Below, in pieces: positions 38,357 to 46,316 of a DNA stretch of 64,000 nucleotides. A program made the position numbers and the translations under genes. The notes below the pieces were generated by a model. That model ran no database searches, was not told the origin of the DNA, and saw only the letters and a program-made list of their open reading frames with translations. The DNA is taken from NCBI RefSeq assembly GCF_002215035.1, contig NZ_NKFP01000006.1, positions 3,439,080 through 3,503,079 of the forward strand. Direction: 5' to 3'. Numbering within the stretch: position 1 is the first letter of the stretch; each line of letters starts with the position of its first letter. This DNA comes from Leptolyngbya ohadii IS1 (GTDB taxonomy: Bacteria; Cyanobacteriota; Cyanobacteriia; Elainellales; Elainellaceae).

Positions 38357-39658
38357 ATGGGATCTGACTCGGAACTACGGGCAGAGCAACTGCTAGAGCT
38401 AGCCAAGCGATCGGGCGCAGAAGCCGCTGAGGTCTATGAATCGCACTCTATGTCCCGTCCCGTCTTTTTTGAGGCAAATCGGCTGAAGCAGCTTGAAAGC
38501 TCCCAGGCAGAAGGAATTGCCCTGCGGCTCTGGCGGGAAGGTCGTCCAGGATTAGCAGTGGCATACGGTGCAGTTGAACCTCAGGCATTAGTCGATCGCG
38601 CCCTTGCCCTTAGCGAACTCAATGATCCGGAAACGATCGAACTTTCGCCGCCCTCCGGTCAGATTTATCCCGATTTGGGAGAAACCTTTGATGTGGAAAC
38701 GCTGGTGGAATGGGGCAGAGAGTCGATCGCTCTGGTGCGGGAGGCATACCCGGAAAGCCTCTGTACAGCAGAGTGGGAATGCGATGCAGAAACCACCCGT
38801 CTGATCAATACAGAAGGATTGGACTGTGGCTATACCGACACCACGTTAAGCTGCTATCTCTCGGCAGAATGGGTGCGTGGCGAGGACTTCCTCAGCGTTT
38901 CCGATGGACAGACCCAGCGTGGGCAGCTCGATCCGGTGCTTTTAGCGCAGCAGATTATCCAGCGGCTGGACTGGGCAAAGCGCAACACGGCTCCTCCTAA
39001 CGGCAAAGTGCCTGTCCTATTTACAGCAAAGGCTGCCGATATGCTGTGGGGCACAGTTCAGGCGGCAATGAACGGCAAACAGGTGATCGAACAGGCATCT
39101 CCCTGGAGCGCTCGCTTGGGGGAAACCGTCACGTCAACGGCGATTACCCTGAGCCAGGAACCCGACCAGGGTCCGTTTAGCTGTCCGTTTGATGATGAAG
39201 GCACCCCCACCAAGCCCATTACCTTTATCCAGGATGGCGTGTTGCAGTTGTTCTATACCGATCGCCGTGTGGGTCGGCAACTGGGCAGCGGCACGACTGG
39301 AAACGGATTCCGTCCCGGATTGGGCAGCTACCCCACGCCTGGGCTGTTTAACATGATCGTGCAGCCGGGAACTGCCTCCCTCAGTGAGCTAATTAGCAAA
39401 ATGGAGAGCGGCATTATTGTGGATCAAATGCTGGGCGGCGGCGCAGGTATTTCCGGCGACTTTTCGATCAACGTCGATCTGGGCTATCGGGTCGATCGCG
39501 GTAAGATTGTCGGACGGGTCAAGGATACGATGGTGGCGGGTAACGTTTATACCGCACTGAAAAACCTGGTCGAGTTAGGCGGTGATGCTGAATGGAATGG
39601 CTCCTGCTATACCCCATCCTTGATCGTAGAAGGACTTTCAACCACAGGACGCGGCTAG
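38357..39658 (+). CDS. pmbA: TldE/PmbA family protein
   Basis: The protein has 433 residues. It matches TldE/PmbA, the non-zinc partner of TldD, with AEAAEVYESHSMSRPVFFEA at the N-terminus, and RQLGSGTTGNGFRPG and GGAGISGDFSINVDLGYRV in the C-terminal half. No HExxxH zinc motif is present, as expected for TldE. TldD-TldE cleaves unstructured peptides, matures some RiPPs and processes the CcdA antitoxin. tldD is not adjacent. A 23-bp tandem duplication starts at its stop codon. Confidence 0.9.
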   Translation: MGSDSELRAEQLLELAKRSGAEAAEVYESHSMSRPVFFEANRLKQLESSQAEGIALRLWREGRPGLAVAYGAVEPQALVDRALALSELNDPETIELSPPSGQIYPDLGETFDVETLVEWGRESIALVREAYPESLCTAEWECDAETTRLINTEGLDCGYTDTTLSCYLSAEWVRGEDFLSVSDGQTQRGQLDPVLLAQQIIQRLDWAKRNTAPPNGKVPVLFTAKAADMLWGTVQAAMNGKQVIEQASPWSARLGETVTSTAITLSQEPDQGPFSCPFDDEGTPTKPITFIQDGVLQLFYTDRRVGRQLGSGTTGNGFRPGLGSYPTPGLFNMIVQPGTASLSELISKMESGIIVDQMLGGGAGISGDFSINVDLGYRVDRGKIVGRVKDTMVAGNVYTALKNLVELGGDAEWNGSCYTPSLIVEGLSTTGRG

Positions 39659-39700
39659 GGTAAATAGCTCGATGTGGTTAGGGTAAATAGCTCGATATCG
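39655..39700. repeat. 23-bp tandem duplication starting at the pmbA stop
   Basis: CTAGGGTAAATAGCTCGAT plus four bases (39655-39677) and its near copy at 39678-39700. The first copy contains the TAG stop codon of pmbA (39656-39658). Confidence 0.88.
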
Positions 39701-39993
39701 TTGTGGGAATGATCCAGTGAAACCGAACTGGAAAGGTAGGCTTTGCGTCTGCCGGGGCAAAAAGACAGATCGTAAAAACCGTCAATAGGGCTGTGATCCA
39801 TGTACTCATGGATTCAGATAGGTATCGCATAGGGCAGGGTGGGGGGGGAAGGCAGAGGTACAGAAACAGCAGACCTGGGGAAAACAGGGTAGCTGCACCC
39901 GACAAACCGAAAGACCAATCAACAAAAGTCTGGTGATTTTCACTCCTGACAGTCCTGGAGAGAACAGACCGTCACTCACACCCGATTCACGCA
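39701..39993. other. Spacer between pmbA and the rearranged M15 locus
   Basis: About 290 bases. A minus-strand frame (39678-39905) contains MSTWITALLTVFTICLFAPA, which looks like a signal peptide, but it covers the pmbA-end duplication and has no recognisable mature part, so no gene is called. ATTCACGCA is duplicated at about 39984-40000. Confidence 0.4.
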
Positions 39994-40174
39994 ATTCACG
40001 CAATTCCCAAAGTGACGATCGCCATAAACGATCGCGAGCTGAATCTTCCCTGAGAAAGATCGTTACAGAACTTTAGAGCGGACGACAAGTTTTGAGTGGC
40101 TGAAACCCCTGAAAAGTGTGATGCTTAGCACAAACTGCGTTATTGCCATCCTGTCATAGGTCATCCAGAGGCGA
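39994..40174 (+). repeat. Left arm of a 181-bp inverted repeat
   Basis: This segment is the reverse complement of 41047-41227. It also overlaps the first direct copy (from 40009). The inner end coincides with the 13-mer CATCCAGAGGCGA (40162-40174), which is also present in the peptidase gene at 41514-41526. Confidence 0.9.
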
Positions 40175-40430
40175 CCAGAGTTTTGGATAAACTTTATGAA
40201 ACGCCTTAAAAATTAAGAAATTATTGTTTTTTAGTCAGTCTGATCAGGAAACTCGATCGCTCGACTCGATTCCCCCTAATTCGTCCATCGTGCTCGATAC
40301 CCTCGCGCATCCAGATGGCATAGGGCAGGAAAGCTGTTATATCTTCCTAGTCCACCTGTCCACCACGGATCGAGTGCCCGATACACCTGATTGCCCGTCA
40401 GCCCGTCGCAGTAGAAATCGATCGCGTCCC
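40009..40430 (+). repeat. First copy of a 422-bp direct repeat
   Basis: Bases 40009-40430 recur at 40498-40919, an offset of 489 bases, with no difference seen by eye. The repeat covers the end of an M15 peptidase coding region (on the minus strand) plus its 3' flank. The right border is the 12-mer CGATCGCGTCCC. Confidence 0.92.
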
Positions 40431-40497
40431 CAATAATGTGACGGCTGAAGGATGCACCTCCTACTTCCTGATTGACGCGATTCCCGCTTGTGACCCG
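40276..40497 (-). pseudogene. M15 peptidase C-terminal fragment, copy 1
   Basis: The minus strand reads FRVTSGNRVNQEVGGASF, then SRHIIGDAIDFYCDG, then ALDPWWTGGLGRY and HLDARGYRARWTN followed by TAG (40276-40278). SRHxxGDAIDF and the closing HxDAR are the zinc-ligand regions of M15A (D-Ala-D-Ala carboxypeptidase-type) domains, as found at the C-terminus of a cyanobacterial cell-wall hydrolase family. There is no start codon and no upstream module in frame, so it is a broken piece. Confidence 0.75.
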
Positions 40498-40919
40498 AAA
40501 GTGACGATCGCCATAAACGATCGCGAGCTGAATCTTCCCTGAGAAAGATCGTTACAGAACTTTAGAGCGGACGACAAGTTTTGAGTGGCTGAAACCCCTG
40601 AAAAGTGTGATGCTTAGCACAAACTGCGTTATTGCCATCCTGTCATAGGTCATCCAGAGGCGACCAGAGTTTTGGATAAACTTTATGAAACGCCTTAAAA
40701 ATTAAGAAATTATTGTTTTTTAGTCAGTCTGATCAGGAAACTCGATCGCTCGACTCGATTCCCCCTAATTCGTCCATCGTGCTCGATACCCTCGCGCATC
40801 CAGATGGCATAGGGCAGGAAAGCTGTTATATCTTCCTAGTCCACCTGTCCACCACGGATCGAGTGCCCGATACACCTGATTGCCCGTCAGCCCGTCGCAG
40901 TAGAAATCGATCGCGTCCC
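40498..40919 (+). repeat. Second copy of the 422-bp direct repeat
   Basis: Identical by eye to 40009-40430. Its right end (CGATCGCGTCCC, 40908-40919) is joined not to the rest of the M15 domain, as in copy 1, but to an inverted piece of the helical-repeat part of the peptidase gene. Confidence 0.92.
40765..40919 (-). pseudogene. M15 peptidase C-terminal fragment, copy 2
   Basis: The minus strand reads from DAIDFYCDGLTGNQVYRAL to the RYRARWTN-type end with TAG at 40765-40767, as in copy 1 but cut at the 12-mer junction 40908-40919. The missing upstream part (VNREVGGASFSRHIIGDAI) lies on the opposite strand at 41221-41278. The frame continues into the junction DNA as an artificial short ORF (MVSAEGLFCRDAIDF). 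Confidence 0.75.
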
Positions 40920-41059
40920 TGCAAAACAATCCTTCAGCGGAAACCAATATCCAAATCGTTGATCCGGCGTTGATGGCGTTTGTACAGCGGGTTCCCCAGT
41001 TCTATCAGTCGCGGGGCGATCAGCGAAATGCGCTCACAGAAACCTATCGCCTCTGGATG
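40920..41059 (+). pseudogene. Inverted copy of the helical-repeat segment of the peptidase gene
   Basis: The plus strand encodes LQNNPSAETNIQIVDPALM and, further on, FVQRVPQFYQSRGDQRNALT and ETYRLWM. This is the same sequence that the adjacent gene carries on the minus strand (about 41514-41653). It is bounded on the left by CGATCGCGTCCC and on the right by TCGCCTCTGGATG, both shared with the other repeats. Confidence 0.85.
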
Positions 41060-41227
41060 ACCTATGACAGGATGGCAATAACGCAGTTTGTGCTAAGCAT
41101 CACACTTTTCAGGGGTTTCAGCCACTCAAAACTTGTCGTCCGCTCTAAAGTTCTGTAACGATCTTTCTCAGGGAAGATTCAGCTCGCGATCGTTTATGGC
41201 GATCGTCACTTTGGGAATTGCGTGAAT
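41047..41227 (-). repeat. Right arm of the 181-bp inverted repeat
   Basis: Reverse complement of 39994-40174. The two arms flank 872 bases that contain the second direct copy and the inverted helical segment. Position n in one arm pairs with 81221 minus n in the other. Confidence 0.9.
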
Positions 41228-41278
41228 CGGGAAGTAGGAGGTGCATCCTTCAGCCGTCACATTATTGGGGACGCGATC
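41221..41278 (+). pseudogene. M15 peptidase fragment in inverted orientation
   Basis: The plus strand reads VNREVGGASFSRHIIGDAI and then meets GGGACGCGATCG (41268-41279), after which the minus-strand peptidase gene begins. It carries the first zinc-ligand motif of the M15 domain. Copy 1 has Gln where this has Arg (VNQEVGG against VNREVGG), so the two copies had already diverged. Confidence 0.75.
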
Positions 41279-42464
41279 GGAGCGTCCTTTCGCGGGTATC
41301 TAGCTGTCGCCAGAGCTGCACGAGTCGAATCAGGGACTCCCGCTGCGGGTCGGTTTCGCGATACATCACAGGGACACGACGCATAAAGCTTAGTAGGGCA
41401 CGATCGAGTTGAGTCGCCGCATTAATCAGCTGGGTGCGATCGGGATTGCTGGCAGTGAGAATCTGAGCATTCACGCCTAGGGAAGTCAGTGCCTCAGTGC
41501 GGGTGGCAAGCCCCATCCAGAGGCGATAGGTTTCTGTGAGCGCATTTCGCTGATCGCCCCGCGACTGATAGAACTGGGGAACCCGCTGTACAAACGCCAT
41601 CAACGCCGGATCAACGATTTGGATATTGGTTTCCGCTGAAGGATTGTTTTGCAGGGACGCGATCGCCTCTTCGCGAGAATCCAGCTGTCGCCAAAGCTGA
41701 ACCAGACGAACTAATGCCTCCCGCTGATGGGGATACCCGGCAAAGAAAGGCGAAATCTGCTGAATGAACTGGATTAAAGGCTGATCTAACCGGGTCGCAT
41801 CCAGTGCCAGCAAACCCGGATCGTTTTCAGGAATTCGCAGCAGTCCGGCGGTTTGCGCTACGCGCAAGAGCGAAGCTACCGCTGCCTCACGGGTGTTGAG
41901 CTTGCGCCAAATCCGAACCGCCTCCAGCACTGCCTCCTGCTGATAGCCCAATCCCAGATAGTAGCGGGGCAACCGCTCCACAAATCGCAGCAGCGCACTA
42001 TCCAGATAATCCAAGTTCTGCGGGAGTTGACTGCCGCTAAAGTCGATCGCCAAATCCTCTAATAGTGCCTGCTTCAGGTCATCCGCGTTACTGGATTCCA
42101 AGCGGGCAGAGGTTGGCTCACTCACAGGCGGAATATAGCCCAGCGCCACGGTTTGAATGAAGCGATCGCTGTAGCGCCCTTCGGCGGCATTCCAGAGATC
42201 CGTGCCCTTCCAGCCCTGCGCGGTCAGCTTATCGGTGAGGCTACGAATTGTGTTTGCCGCGAACTGTACCTGCTCTGCAAAGGTATTCACCTGATCCGGC
42301 GGAATCCGATTGGCGGGCGAAATGCCTAACCCCGTTTCCCCATCACTGAGGACAGGACGACGCTGCACGGTATAAAGGGCTGCCAGGATGGGTTTATGGA
42401 TTCCAGTACGGGCGGCTTCGAGCAGGTAGTAATAGTTGCGCTGCTCTGGGTTGAGTCCTGCCAT
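41262..42464 (-). pseudogene. Truncated cell-wall peptidase: N-terminal module and helical repeats, M15 domain lost
   Basis: The open frame has 400 residues. The N-terminal part (LNPEQRNYYYLLEAARTGIH, GLGISPANRIPPDQVNTFAE) is the conserved module of a cyanobacterial cell-wall protein family that normally ends in an M15 peptidase. Residues about 125-390 contain repeated helical units with the pattern RVP-FY, QREAL-RLVQLWRQLDSREEAIASL. The frame stops shortly after the 12-mer CGATCGCGTCCC (LDTRERTLRSRPQ), where the locus is rearranged. The peptidase part is scattered at 40276-40497, 40765-40919 and 41221-41278. The truncated protein could still be made, but lacks catalysis. Confidence 0.75.
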
Positions 42465-42824: not shown

Positions 42825-43181
42825 CTACAAATATAGGAAAGCAACCAAATATAGGAAAGCAACCAAACTCGCTCCAGCAATTGCCCCTGTGTAAGCAAAG
42901 AATGGTACCAAAACAGGCACGAAGATAAACCCAGTAGCCTGGGATTCCATCCAACTACGGTGAAGCGTTTGTAACCAGATCACGCCCGACGGCACCATCA
43001 AAATTGCTCCAGCGATCGCTCCTACCAGCACCAGCAATAGGGATACAAAGGACTGACTATAGATAAACGCCATCACCCCAGCCCCAATTAGTGGACTGAG
43101 GATGAGAAGCAACACCAACACCCTGATTCCAGCCTCAAACAACCATTTAAGAATGAAAGTCAAAAACAGGTAAGCTGGCAC
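42825..43181 (-). CDS. Small multi-pass membrane protein
   Basis: A 118-residue, very hydrophobic protein with three to four membrane segments (about 5-35, 42-70 and 85-118). The family was not recognised. It starts three bases after the WGR/YwqG gene ends and is thus in its operon. An 18-bp perfect tandem duplication (42828-42863) repeats the last codons, giving the C-terminal [12 protein letters not shown], so the original protein was probably six residues shorter. Confidence 0.7.
42828..42863. repeat. 18-bp tandem duplication in the C-terminal codons of the membrane protein
   Basis: CAAATATAGGAAAGCAAC occurs at 42828-42845 and again at 42846-42863. It is in frame and adds six residues. 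Confidence 0.93.
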
Positions 43182-43184
43182 AGC

Positions 43185-45287
43185 TCAATCACACACGAAG
43201 TAAAACTCGACATCCCTGAAATCGCGATCGCGCAGTTGTTCATCTGGGATAAAAAAGAGGAAGGAATCCTCATAGCTCCCAGGATGAATCAATTCTAGTA
43301 ATAGTCTGCCATTGACTCTTGCGCCAATGGCGTCGAGGTCACCATATCCACCGAGTTTGCTTCTTCTCCGCTCATGAATGTTGTCCAAAATCCATTCGTT
43401 GAATTCTTCACACAGTTCTGCAAATTCTTCAGGACTACCGAGATCTATGCCGTACCGCAATTCCCAGAACAGATCTCGACTCGCTGAGAAGGTAATTGGA
43501 TAGACTTCAGGATACATCTCTCGGAGCGTCTCGTCTCTTTCAATAAAGCTGAAATCTGTAATTAAGTCACTGGGATTGGTTGAGATCTCTGGAAAATAGA
43601 GAACTCGATATTTGCCAGGGGTTTCAGCTGCCTCAGCGGGTTGGGACCCTAGATAAAATTGCAAAATGCCCACTTGAGGAAAATCAAATCCAGCAATGGG
43701 TGGAACTTCAGCACAATTAATTTGCATCAGGAGAGGCAGCGCTTTACCCGTACCCAGATCAATGGGATACTTAGCCGTCTTAGGAAAATAAGGATTGCCG
43801 CCAATCTTGCTCTGCCAAACCGTCAGCGGGTCGCCTGTTCCCCTGTTGAAAAAATCCATGCTACCAACCTGTTCCCCAGCCTGAATTCGGATGTAAGGGA
43901 CTAGGTTTTGTTGGAGGAACGACTGTAGCGGCTCAAACTGAGGCGGCAAATTCTCCAGAAACGATAGTATATCGGTTATCCGCGGTGGTGGCGATGGGTG
44001 TTGGTTCGGTGGGGGAACTGGCGTCACAACTGCTGGACTTTGAGGCACCTGTCTTTCAACCATTGGTGACTCTAATACTCTGACCTGTTGCAGCTTCAAG
44101 CCTGTGGGATGGTAGTTCAGGTACAATGTATCCGGTGGGTCAGAAGGTTCGAGAGGGTAGAAGAACGGTTGATTATTCAAGTAAAAAACAATATTTCCCT
44201 CTGCGGTCATCACCAGCACATACTGAAAGACCTGCCCCGATGCGATCGTACTGGGAAATTCGAGTCGTTCTTCCCTCCACATGCCACCTACAGCAGACCA
44301 TTGCATCATTAGTCTGTGATTGGGTTGAAAGTCAAACCCATAAATGTTAACGGTCTCTCGATCCTGCTTCGCCGTTAATCGGATGGTAAAGATACCCTGC
44401 GCCAGATCGTGAAAGGTGCCAACGATCTCAATACAAGCGATCGATCGCGGTAAAGGGATGCTCAAACTGTAAAACTCGGACTCACGGAAACTAAATCCCA
44501 GGCTGTGCCTGACGTTAGGAAGGAGGTTTCGGGCAACGCGAGGTGGAAAGAGCGGCGAATAATTCAGCAGATCAAGGCTGGGGGCAGGAATGGTGGGATC
44601 AATCACAGGCAGGGGCGGTGCAGCGGCGGGACTGGATGGCTCCTGGCTCAGGTCGGACGGCAATTCAGCCCCATTAATGGAACTCAACCTGATTTCACTG
44701 TCCTCTGAAGATTCGGAAGCAGGGCGATCGCGGCTGGGTTCCTGCCATTGTCCTTTGTGATACTCCTCCCACCTCGCGTCGTTCCCATCGCGATCCCAAC
44801 GGACAAGCATAGCTGTCGCTGTCAGTCGAACCGTTACCCTGCGAGACTGGTCGTATAATTCAACGTACTCTTCGGTTCGGGTCGTCTCCCGAAACTGCCA
44901 TGAGTGACCCTGGTGACGGGTCTCCTCGTTCGCCTCTTCCCAGCCACCCTGCCCATCTGAAATGAACCACGCATTCCCATAAACCCAGTAGTGGCGCGGA
45001 TCAGCAAGCAACTGCTCTGACGAGGTTGGGCGATCGCCACTGGGTGAAACCTGGACATAGCCTTTTCTCAACTTTTCGTTGATTTTCTTAGTTGCCTCAG
45101 CCTGTGCTTTTTCTGGGGTTGCATAGGTACTGTTTGATGATTGTCCTGTAGTACCAATCCGCCCATAGCGAATCGTTACCGCTGTCCCATTCACCCCTAC
45201 CTCATAAAACTTATGGGATTGTCCGTCTGATAATTCTAGATAAACCAGCTCGGAGGCAGGGAGATCACGGCTGTCACCAATACTCAT
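43185..45287 (-). CDS. WGR-domain and YwqG/DUF1963 fusion protein
   Basis: The protein has 700 residues and no signal peptide. Residues about 10-80 form a WGR domain (KFYEVGVNGTAVTIRYGRIG), a nucleic-acid-linked module found in PARPs and MolR-like proteins. Residues about 240-410 are a beta-rich region resembling a lectin or laminin-G-like sandwich (FTIRLTAKQDRETVNIYGFD, GNIVFYLNNQPFF). Residues about 440-700 match the YwqG/DUF1963 family (GGNPYFPKTAKYP, LPLLMQINCAEVPP, LGGYGDLDAIG, HPGSYEDSFLFFIPDEQLRD), whose function is unknown. A Pro/Ser linker separates the domains. The order WGR, beta sandwich, YwqG is unusual. A small membrane protein follows three bases downstream. Confidence 0.8.
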   Translation of the reverse strand: MSIGDSRDLPASELVYLELSDGQSHKFYEVGVNGTAVTIRYGRIGTTGQSSNSTYATPEKAQAEATKKINEKLRKGYVQVSPSGDRPTSSEQLLADPRHYWVYGNAWFISDGQGGWEEANEETRHQGHSWQFRETTRTEEYVELYDQSRRVTVRLTATAMLVRWDRDGNDARWEEYHKGQWQEPSRDRPASESSEDSEIRLSSINGAELPSDLSQEPSSPAAAPPLPVIDPTIPAPSLDLLNYSPLFPPRVARNLLPNVRHSLGFSFRESEFYSLSIPLPRSIACIEIVGTFHDLAQGIFTIRLTAKQDRETVNIYGFDFQPNHRLMMQWSAVGGMWREERLEFPSTIASGQVFQYVLVMTAEGNIVFYLNNQPFFYPLEPSDPPDTLYLNYHPTGLKLQQVRVLESPMVERQVPQSPAVVTPVPPPNQHPSPPPRITDILSFLENLPPQFEPLQSFLQQNLVPYIRIQAGEQVGSMDFFNRGTGDPLTVWQSKIGGNPYFPKTAKYPIDLGTGKALPLLMQINCAEVPPIAGFDFPQVGILQFYLGSQPAEAAETPGKYRVLYFPEISTNPSDLITDFSFIERDETLREMYPEVYPITFSASRDLFWELRYGIDLGSPEEFAELCEEFNEWILDNIHERRRSKLGGYGDLDAIGARVNGRLLLELIHPGSYEDSFLFFIPDEQLRDRDFRDVEFYFVCD

Positions 45288-45563: not shown

Positions 45564-46316
45564 ATGCTCCCCCTCAACCAAATCCGCCTCATCGCCACCG
45601 ACATGGACGGCACACTCACCCGATCGGGTAAATTCACGCCTTCCCTCCTGCAAGCCTTAACTGATTTGCAGAATGCCGGAATTCCCGTGGTGATCGTGAC
45701 CGGACGATCGGCGGGATGGGTGAATGCGATCGCCACTTATCTCCCTGTGACGGCTGCGATCGCGGAGAATGGAGGGCTGTTTTACCGGGCGGACAAGTTA
45801 GAGTTAGAGTCAATCGTTTCGATTCCAGATATCGGGCAGCATCGGCAGAAATTAGCGCAGATGTTTAGTGATCTGCAAACGATCGTGCCGCATATTTGTG
45901 AGTCGGCAGATAATCGATTTCGGGTGACGGACTGGACGTTTGATATTGAGGGATTGTCGGACGCAGAAATTCAGCAGTTGGGCGATCGCTGTCGTCAGAA
46001 CGGCTGGGGGTTTACCTACAGTACGGTGCAGTGTCACATTTTGCCGCAGGAGCAGAATAAGGCGGCAGGGCTGTTGCAGGTGCTTCGTCAGCAGTTTCCA
46101 GATATATCCGTGGATTCCGTGGTGACGGTGGGGGACAGTCCCAACGATGAAAGTTTATTCGATCGCGGATTCTTTCCCCATTCCGTTGGCGTGGCAAATA
46201 TTAGGCATTACGTTGATCGCCTCAACCATAAGCCCTCCTATATTACTGAGGCAGAGGAAGCAGACGGATTTTGTGAATTGGCGCGATCGATTATCCAGGC
46301 TATTTCTATTGAGTAA
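45564..46316 (+). CDS. HAD-superfamily hydrolase (Cof/sucrose-phosphatase type)
   Basis: A 250-residue cytoplasmic protein. Motif I is in LIATDMDGTLT, motif II in VIVTGRSAG, motif III is the lysine in QNKAAGLL, and motif IV is TVGDSPNDESLF. The cap (about 85-175) is of the IIB type as in Cof and sucrose-phosphatase-like proteins. It dephosphorylates a small phosphometabolite, probably a sugar phosphate; the substrate is not determined. It converges with the alpha/beta hydrolase gene and overlaps its end by 11 bases. Confidence 0.9.
   Translation: MLPLNQIRLIATDMDGTLTRSGKFTPSLLQALTDLQNAGIPVVIVTGRSAGWVNAIATYLPVTAAIAENGGLFYRADKLELESIVSIPDIGQHRQKLAQMFSDLQTIVPHICESADNRFRVTDWTFDIEGLSDAEIQQLGDRCRQNGWGFTYSTVQCHILPQEQNKAAGLLQVLRQQFPDISVDSVVTVGDSPNDESLFDRGFFPHSVGVANIRHYVDRLNHKPSYITEAEEADGFCELARSIIQAISIE

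What the first reader, a model, noticed from the sequence alone, without database searches (positions are those of the whole stretch)
39994..42464. Peptidoglycan M15 peptidase locus broken up by direct duplication and inversion, reconstructable as an inversion at a 12-mer
Seen: a 422-bp direct repeat (40009-40430, 40498-40919), a 181-bp inverted repeat (39994-40174, 41047-41227) and pieces of one gene family on both strands. The 12-mer CGATCGCGTCCC occurs at 40419 and 40908 on the plus strand and inverted at 41268 and 41654. Flipping 40908-41279 would rejoin VNREVGGASFSRHIIGDAI (41221-41278) with DFYCDG... (40765-40919) and rebuild an M15 domain on the minus strand. It would also put the inverted helical segment (40920-41059) back in the gene's direction. 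The gene body (41262-42464) presently lacks its peptidase part. Inference: either decay of a surface hydrolase or an invertible cassette that switches the peptidase domain.
Basis: partly seen in the sequence, partly recalled or inferred. Interest (0 to 1): 0.75.

Follow-up and report, generated by a model that had tools for sequence, protein, structure and literature searches.

The report
Gene broken by local DNA reshuffling
In this cyanobacterium a conserved gene for a predicted cell-wall-cutting enzyme has been broken, apparently recently, by a local scramble of copied and flipped DNA that deleted part of it, so it looks like ordinary gene decay and not a switch that flips the enzyme on and off.

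Summary
The repeats are real and at the stated coordinates; two more inverted pairs were missed (152 bp, 40908-41059/41514-41665; 67 bp, 40419-40485/41213-41279). The gene is a truncated member of a cyanobacterial family of about 555 aa with a C-terminal Peptidase_M15_3 domain, intact in same-genus strain FACHB-502 and most relatives. In the window the body ends after 400 aa. The M15 C-terminal half is already contiguous at 40279-40507(-), so no flip is needed to assemble it. About 85 residues joining body to peptidase are absent from the whole genome, and no combination of up to three inversions or deletions at the repeats joins body and M15 in one frame. The 12-mer is a common HIP1-like word (34 genomic copies). 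No relative shares the arrangement. dN/dS near 0.07 in both parts plus 100% identical copies make the break recent. Flipping 40908-41279 does put every piece in one direction, so an inversion at the 12-mer may have been one historical step. Best reading: recent pseudogenisation by microhomology-mediated template switching plus a deletion. An invertible peptidase switch is not supported. Assembly error cannot be excluded without reads.

The parts
41262..42464 (-). Truncated gene body, 400 aa; residues up to about 397 align to the N-terminal part of the ~555-aa family, then 3 junk codons (RPQ) and a stop made by the junction
   Evidence: 47 of 60 relatives match, most with open frames of 550-600 aa
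40279..40507 (-). M15_3 peptidase C-terminal half (GDRHFRVTSGNRVNQEVGG...SRH..GDAID...LCHLD...RWTN stop), contiguous but without start or linker; the SWYRPPAIN motif is altered to SGNRVN
   Evidence: PF08291 E 9e-8; 88% to the last 79 residues of FACHB-502
39994..40276 (.). Non-coding sequence between tldD and the M15 piece; parts match the tldD downstream region of FACHB-502
   Evidence: 39676-39913 and 40129-40220 match G001:C23:107956-108522
40498..40919 (+). Direct second copy of 40009-40430 (intergenic plus 3' half of M15)
   Evidence: 422/422 identical
40908..41059 (-). Inverted copy of body segment 41514-41665; junction on the left at the 12-mer CGATCGCGTCCC
   Evidence: 152/152
41047..41227 (-). 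Inverted copy of 39994-40174; shares 13 bp with the preceding segment at the junction (41047-41059)
   Evidence: 181/181
41213..41279 (+). Inverted copy of M15 segment 40419-40485 (VNREVGGASFSRHIIGDAI reads on the plus strand), ending in the inverted 12-mer where the body begins
   Evidence: 67 nt, 96%; exact from 41230
38357..39658 (+). tldD/pmbA-type metallopeptidase gene, intact neighbour
45564..46316 (+). HAD phosphatase gene; lies directly and divergently upstream of this gene in 13 relatives, suggesting the gene is at its old address

Best explanation
A conserved cyanobacterial gene for a predicted M15 (Zn) peptidoglycan peptidase was recently pseudogenised in place. A local replication accident (fork stalling and template switching / MMBIR-like, or an equivalent tandem duplication followed by an inversion at a 12-bp inverted microhomology) copied pieces of the gene's 3' end, of the adjoining intergenic region and of the body, in both orientations, into the gene. 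The same accident or an accompanying deletion removed about 280 bp coding for the linker and the start of the peptidase region. Shown: the repeats, their identity, the microhomologies, the missing stretch, intact relatives, uniqueness to this genome. Inferred: the replication mechanism, the order of events, loss of peptidase function.
For: Intact ~555-aa homologues in relatives, including same-genus FACHB-502. The missing stretch, residues 27-111 of the 190-aa C-terminal query, has no credible match in the 7.9-Mb genome, and no paralogue exists. Junctions share 12 and 13 bp. The flip of 40908-41279 gives a uniformly oriented array (39994-40497, 40009-40485, 39994-40174, 41514-41665, then body). 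100% identity of the 422, 181 and 152 bp copies, while body and M15 fragment both show dN about 0.06 and dS about 0.95 against FACHB-502, implies a recent event after long purifying selection. The block is absent from the other 35 family genomes. E. coli amplification isolates show inverted duplications with 3-30 bp microhomology junctions, interpreted as repeated template switching (PMC3161906).
Against: No reads are available, so the arrangement rests on one assembly. One junction (41228-41232) has only about 2 bp of exact microhomology and the ancestral bases at the body junction (41280) are unknown, so the pathway cannot be fixed. Perfect identity is also what a chimeric assembly would show.
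Confidence: 0.8

Rival explanations
1. Assembly or library artefact: fold-back or chimeric molecules built into the consensus, with an intact gene in the real genome.
For: Perfect identity of all copies; several strand flips within 1.3 kb; the missing linker is unique sequence that one would expect to be kept; confined to one genome.
Against: The place lies in a 4.26-Mb contig of an 8-contig, 100% complete assembly, which suggests long reads. The M15 copy differs from FACHB-502 by a 9-bp loss and changed residues at the SWYRPPAIN motif beside the junction, and the copies differ by a 9-bp tandem repeat unit at one end, which a simple chimera would not make.
Confidence: 0.15
2. Invertible cassette: recombination at the 12-mers or the 181-bp arms reversibly switches the peptidase domain on and off.
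For: Inverted repeats are present and a flip at the 12-mers joins two M15 halves. RecA could in principle recombine 181-bp arms (general knowledge).
Against: Neither orientation can make a full gene: the linker is absent from the genome and none of the rearranged forms reached in up to three steps has body and M15 in one frame. The 12-mer is scattered genome-wide, no recombinase was found among the neighbouring genes scanned, and the arrangement is not conserved in relatives.
Confidence: 0.03
3. The shortened 400-aa protein is a selected form: the family can dispense with the peptidase and this lineage has shed it. (This concerns the consequence and can be true together with the best explanation.)
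For: Seven of 27 relatives with a full C-terminus have lost zinc ligands (D to E or T, H to Y) yet keep the gene; the body frame here is intact with low dN/dS.
Against: The break looks too recent to show selection on the truncated form; the 20 other relatives, FACHB-502 included, keep all ligands.
Confidence: 0.2

Closest known systems
Microhomology-mediated template switching (long-distance template switch / MMBIR) in E. coli lac amplification (PMC3161906)
   Same: Local direct and inverted duplications, several junctions, short microhomologies (reported 3-30 bp; here 12, 13 and about 2 bp)
   Different: There 5-43 kb segments under selection for amplification; here 50-420 bp pieces in a gene, with loss of unique sequence and no evident selection
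Tandem inversion duplications (Salmonella and E. coli; Kugelberg et al. as cited in PMC3161906)
   Same: Mixed direct and inverted copies of one region, explained by two inverted switches
   Different: Here the pieces are short and patched from three sources, and the structure is not a simple + - + triplication
Peptidase_M15_3 (PF08291) domain proteins
   Same: C-terminal fragment scores above the family cut-off and keeps SxHxxGDAxD and HxD
   Different: N-terminal part of the domain is missing and the fragment has no start; the body domain is not annotated in Pfam or NCBIfam
Invertons / phase-variable invertible elements
   Same: Inverted repeats flank a segment in or near a gene for a predicted wall enzyme
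   Different: No complete product in either orientation, no recombinase among the genes scanned nearby, no conservation, generic 12-mer

Membership tests
Peptidase M15_3 gene (intact member) | Complete domain with zinc ligands H, D, H in one open frame with a start | tested here: not met
   Ligands are present in 40279-40507 but the frame has no start and lacks the N-terminal part
Invertible phase-variation element | One orientation gives a complete product | tested here: not met
Invertible phase-variation element | Dedicated recombinase nearby | tested here: not met
   Main ORFs scanned between 33 and 50 kb are ribosomal proteins, SecY, Tab2, TldD, WGR/DUF1963, HAD, hydrolase, ParA-like ATPase, racemase; not every small ORF was scanned, and a distant recombinase was not sought
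Invertible phase-variation element | Both orientations present in the population | not testable with these tools
   No reads available
Template-switch (MMBIR-like) complex rearrangement | Several junctions joining nearby sequence in direct and inverted orientation | tested here: met
Template-switch (MMBIR-like) complex rearrangement | Microhomology at the junctions | tested here: met
   12 bp at 40908-40919 and 13 bp at 41047-41059; about 2 bp at 41230-41231; the junctions at 40498 and 41280 cannot be measured because the ancestral neighbours are lost
Pseudogene | Disrupted relative to intact orthologues, with no intact copy elsewhere | tested here: met

The most novel reading that the evidence does not exclude
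The locus is a rearrangement hot spot: HIP1-like words, very frequent in this genome, supply inverted microhomologies at which forks switch template, and the M15 end of this gene family is repeatedly remodelled or lost while the body is kept.
Probability: 0.06. Interest if true: 0.45.

Novelty: new member of a known kind. Interest (0 to 1): 0.17.

Why it matters
It is a clear, fresh example of how a conserved bacterial gene can be broken by local copy-and-flip replication errors. It also shows that inverted repeats near a gene for a wall enzyme need not mean phase variation: checking whether any arrangement restores a full gene settles it. The wider interest is limited.

Tried and rejected
An invertible switch was rejected. 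A mobile element as the source of the duplicated unit was rejected: it has no other copy in the genome and its intergenic part matches the tldD downstream region of FACHB-502. An intact paralogue was sought with the C-terminal protein and with PF08291: none. Translocation of the gene to this site was considered because FACHB-502 has it elsewhere, but the HAD neighbour is shared with 13 other relatives, so the window position is probably the older one. A structure model from two sequences was too poor to use (mean pLDDT 39.8); the PDB profile search gave only a weak hit to the muramoyl-pentapeptide carboxypeptidase 1lbu for the M15 part (E 0.009). A 13-sequence alignment failed on coordinates. 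A paper search for M15 peptidases in cyanobacteria found none.

Full report
Observation. The window is G000:C6:3439080-3503079, in a cyanobacterial genome of 7.9 Mb in 8 contigs. Two further inverted pairs were not reported: 40908-41059 with 41514-41665 (152 bp, identical) and 40419-40485 with 41213-41279 (67 bp, 96%). Outside this locus the longest exact repeat in the window is 28 bp.

What the gene is. The 400-aa minus-strand ORF matches 47 of 60 relatives, mostly as the first ~397 residues of open frames of 550-600 aa. The same-genus relative G001, which is Cyanobacteria bacterium FACHB-502, has an intact 555-aa gene with a Peptidase_M15_3 domain at its C-terminus. In the window the M15 C-terminal half lies contiguous at 40279-40507 on the minus strand and keeps the SRH..GDAID and CHLD motifs. 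Its SWYRPPAIN motif has become SGNRVN.

What is missing. A 190-aa query of the FACHB-502 C-terminus finds in the whole genome only its first 26 to 35 residues (in the body's helical repeats) and its residues 112-190 or parts of them (the M15 pieces). The only other match is a 30% stretch with three stops at E 0.23. PF08291 finds no other gene. About 280 bp that join body and peptidase are therefore gone, and no rearrangement of existing sequence can bring them back.

Anatomy of the scramble. Reading rightwards: 39994-40497 (intergenic and M15 3' half); 40498-40919, a direct copy of 40009-40430; 40920-41059, an inverted copy of body 41514-41653, joined at the 12-mer; 41047-41227, an inverted copy of 39994-40174, sharing 13 bp with the preceding piece; to 41279, an inverted copy of M15 40419-40485; then the body from 41280. 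A chain of template switches in one event is another. After that inversion the body ends out of frame at 417 codons and the M15 stretch of 87 codons is still separate. All arrangements reachable by up to three inversions or deletions at repeats of 12, 20 or 50 bp gave no joined frame.

The 12-mer. CGATCGCGTCCC occurs 34 times in the genome, against once for the reversed control. It is a HIP1-like word (HIP1, GCGATCGC, from general knowledge), not a special site. Of the four copies here only two are independent (40419 and 41654); the others came with the duplications.

Age and uniqueness. The body and the M15 fragment both have dN about 0.065 and dS about 0.95 against FACHB-502, so the peptidase part was under purifying selection for most of the time since that split. 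With copies 100% identical the break is recent. None of the other 35 genomes of the family shows the rearranged block. The HAD gene upstream at 45564 is the direct divergent neighbour of this gene in 13 relatives, so the break probably occurred at the old address.

Mechanism. Multi-junction local rearrangement with direct and inverted copies and short microhomologies is the pattern explained in E. coli by repeated template switching (PMC3161906). Order and enzymes are inferred. Assembly error is the main remaining rival and needs reads.

Verdict. Ordinary gene decay by a known kind of rearrangement.

Noticed in passing
L017, L022, L023, L025, L029, L033, L034 (C-terminal M15 domain): Seven of 27 distinct relatives with a complete C-terminus have lost M15 zinc ligands (D to E or T, second H to Y) while keeping the gene: pseudopeptidase forms. 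Whether they form one clade was not tested.
   Followed up: partly
42825-45287: A small ORF and a WGR/DUF1963 gene lie between this gene and the HAD phosphatase gene that is its direct neighbour in 13 relatives, so about 3 kb was probably inserted or moved there.
   Followed up: partly
41850-41890: In-frame insert in the body relative to FACHB-502 (extra residues near RVAQTAGLL), containing a near-palindromic CGCTACGCGCAAGAGCGAAGCTAC sequence that resembles cyanobacterial dispersed repeats.
   Followed up: no
39979-40008: A 9-bp tandem repeat (ACGCAATTC twice) that is single in the inverted copy at 41213-41231, and that resembles the altered M15 motif region at 40473-40491; possible templated patching.
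   Followed up: no
49942 and 58150: A 28-bp exact direct repeat, CCCTCGCTCCAATGCTCTGCGTTGGAAT, the longest elsewhere in the window (positions converted from the masked copy); looks like a dispersed repeat.
   Followed up: no
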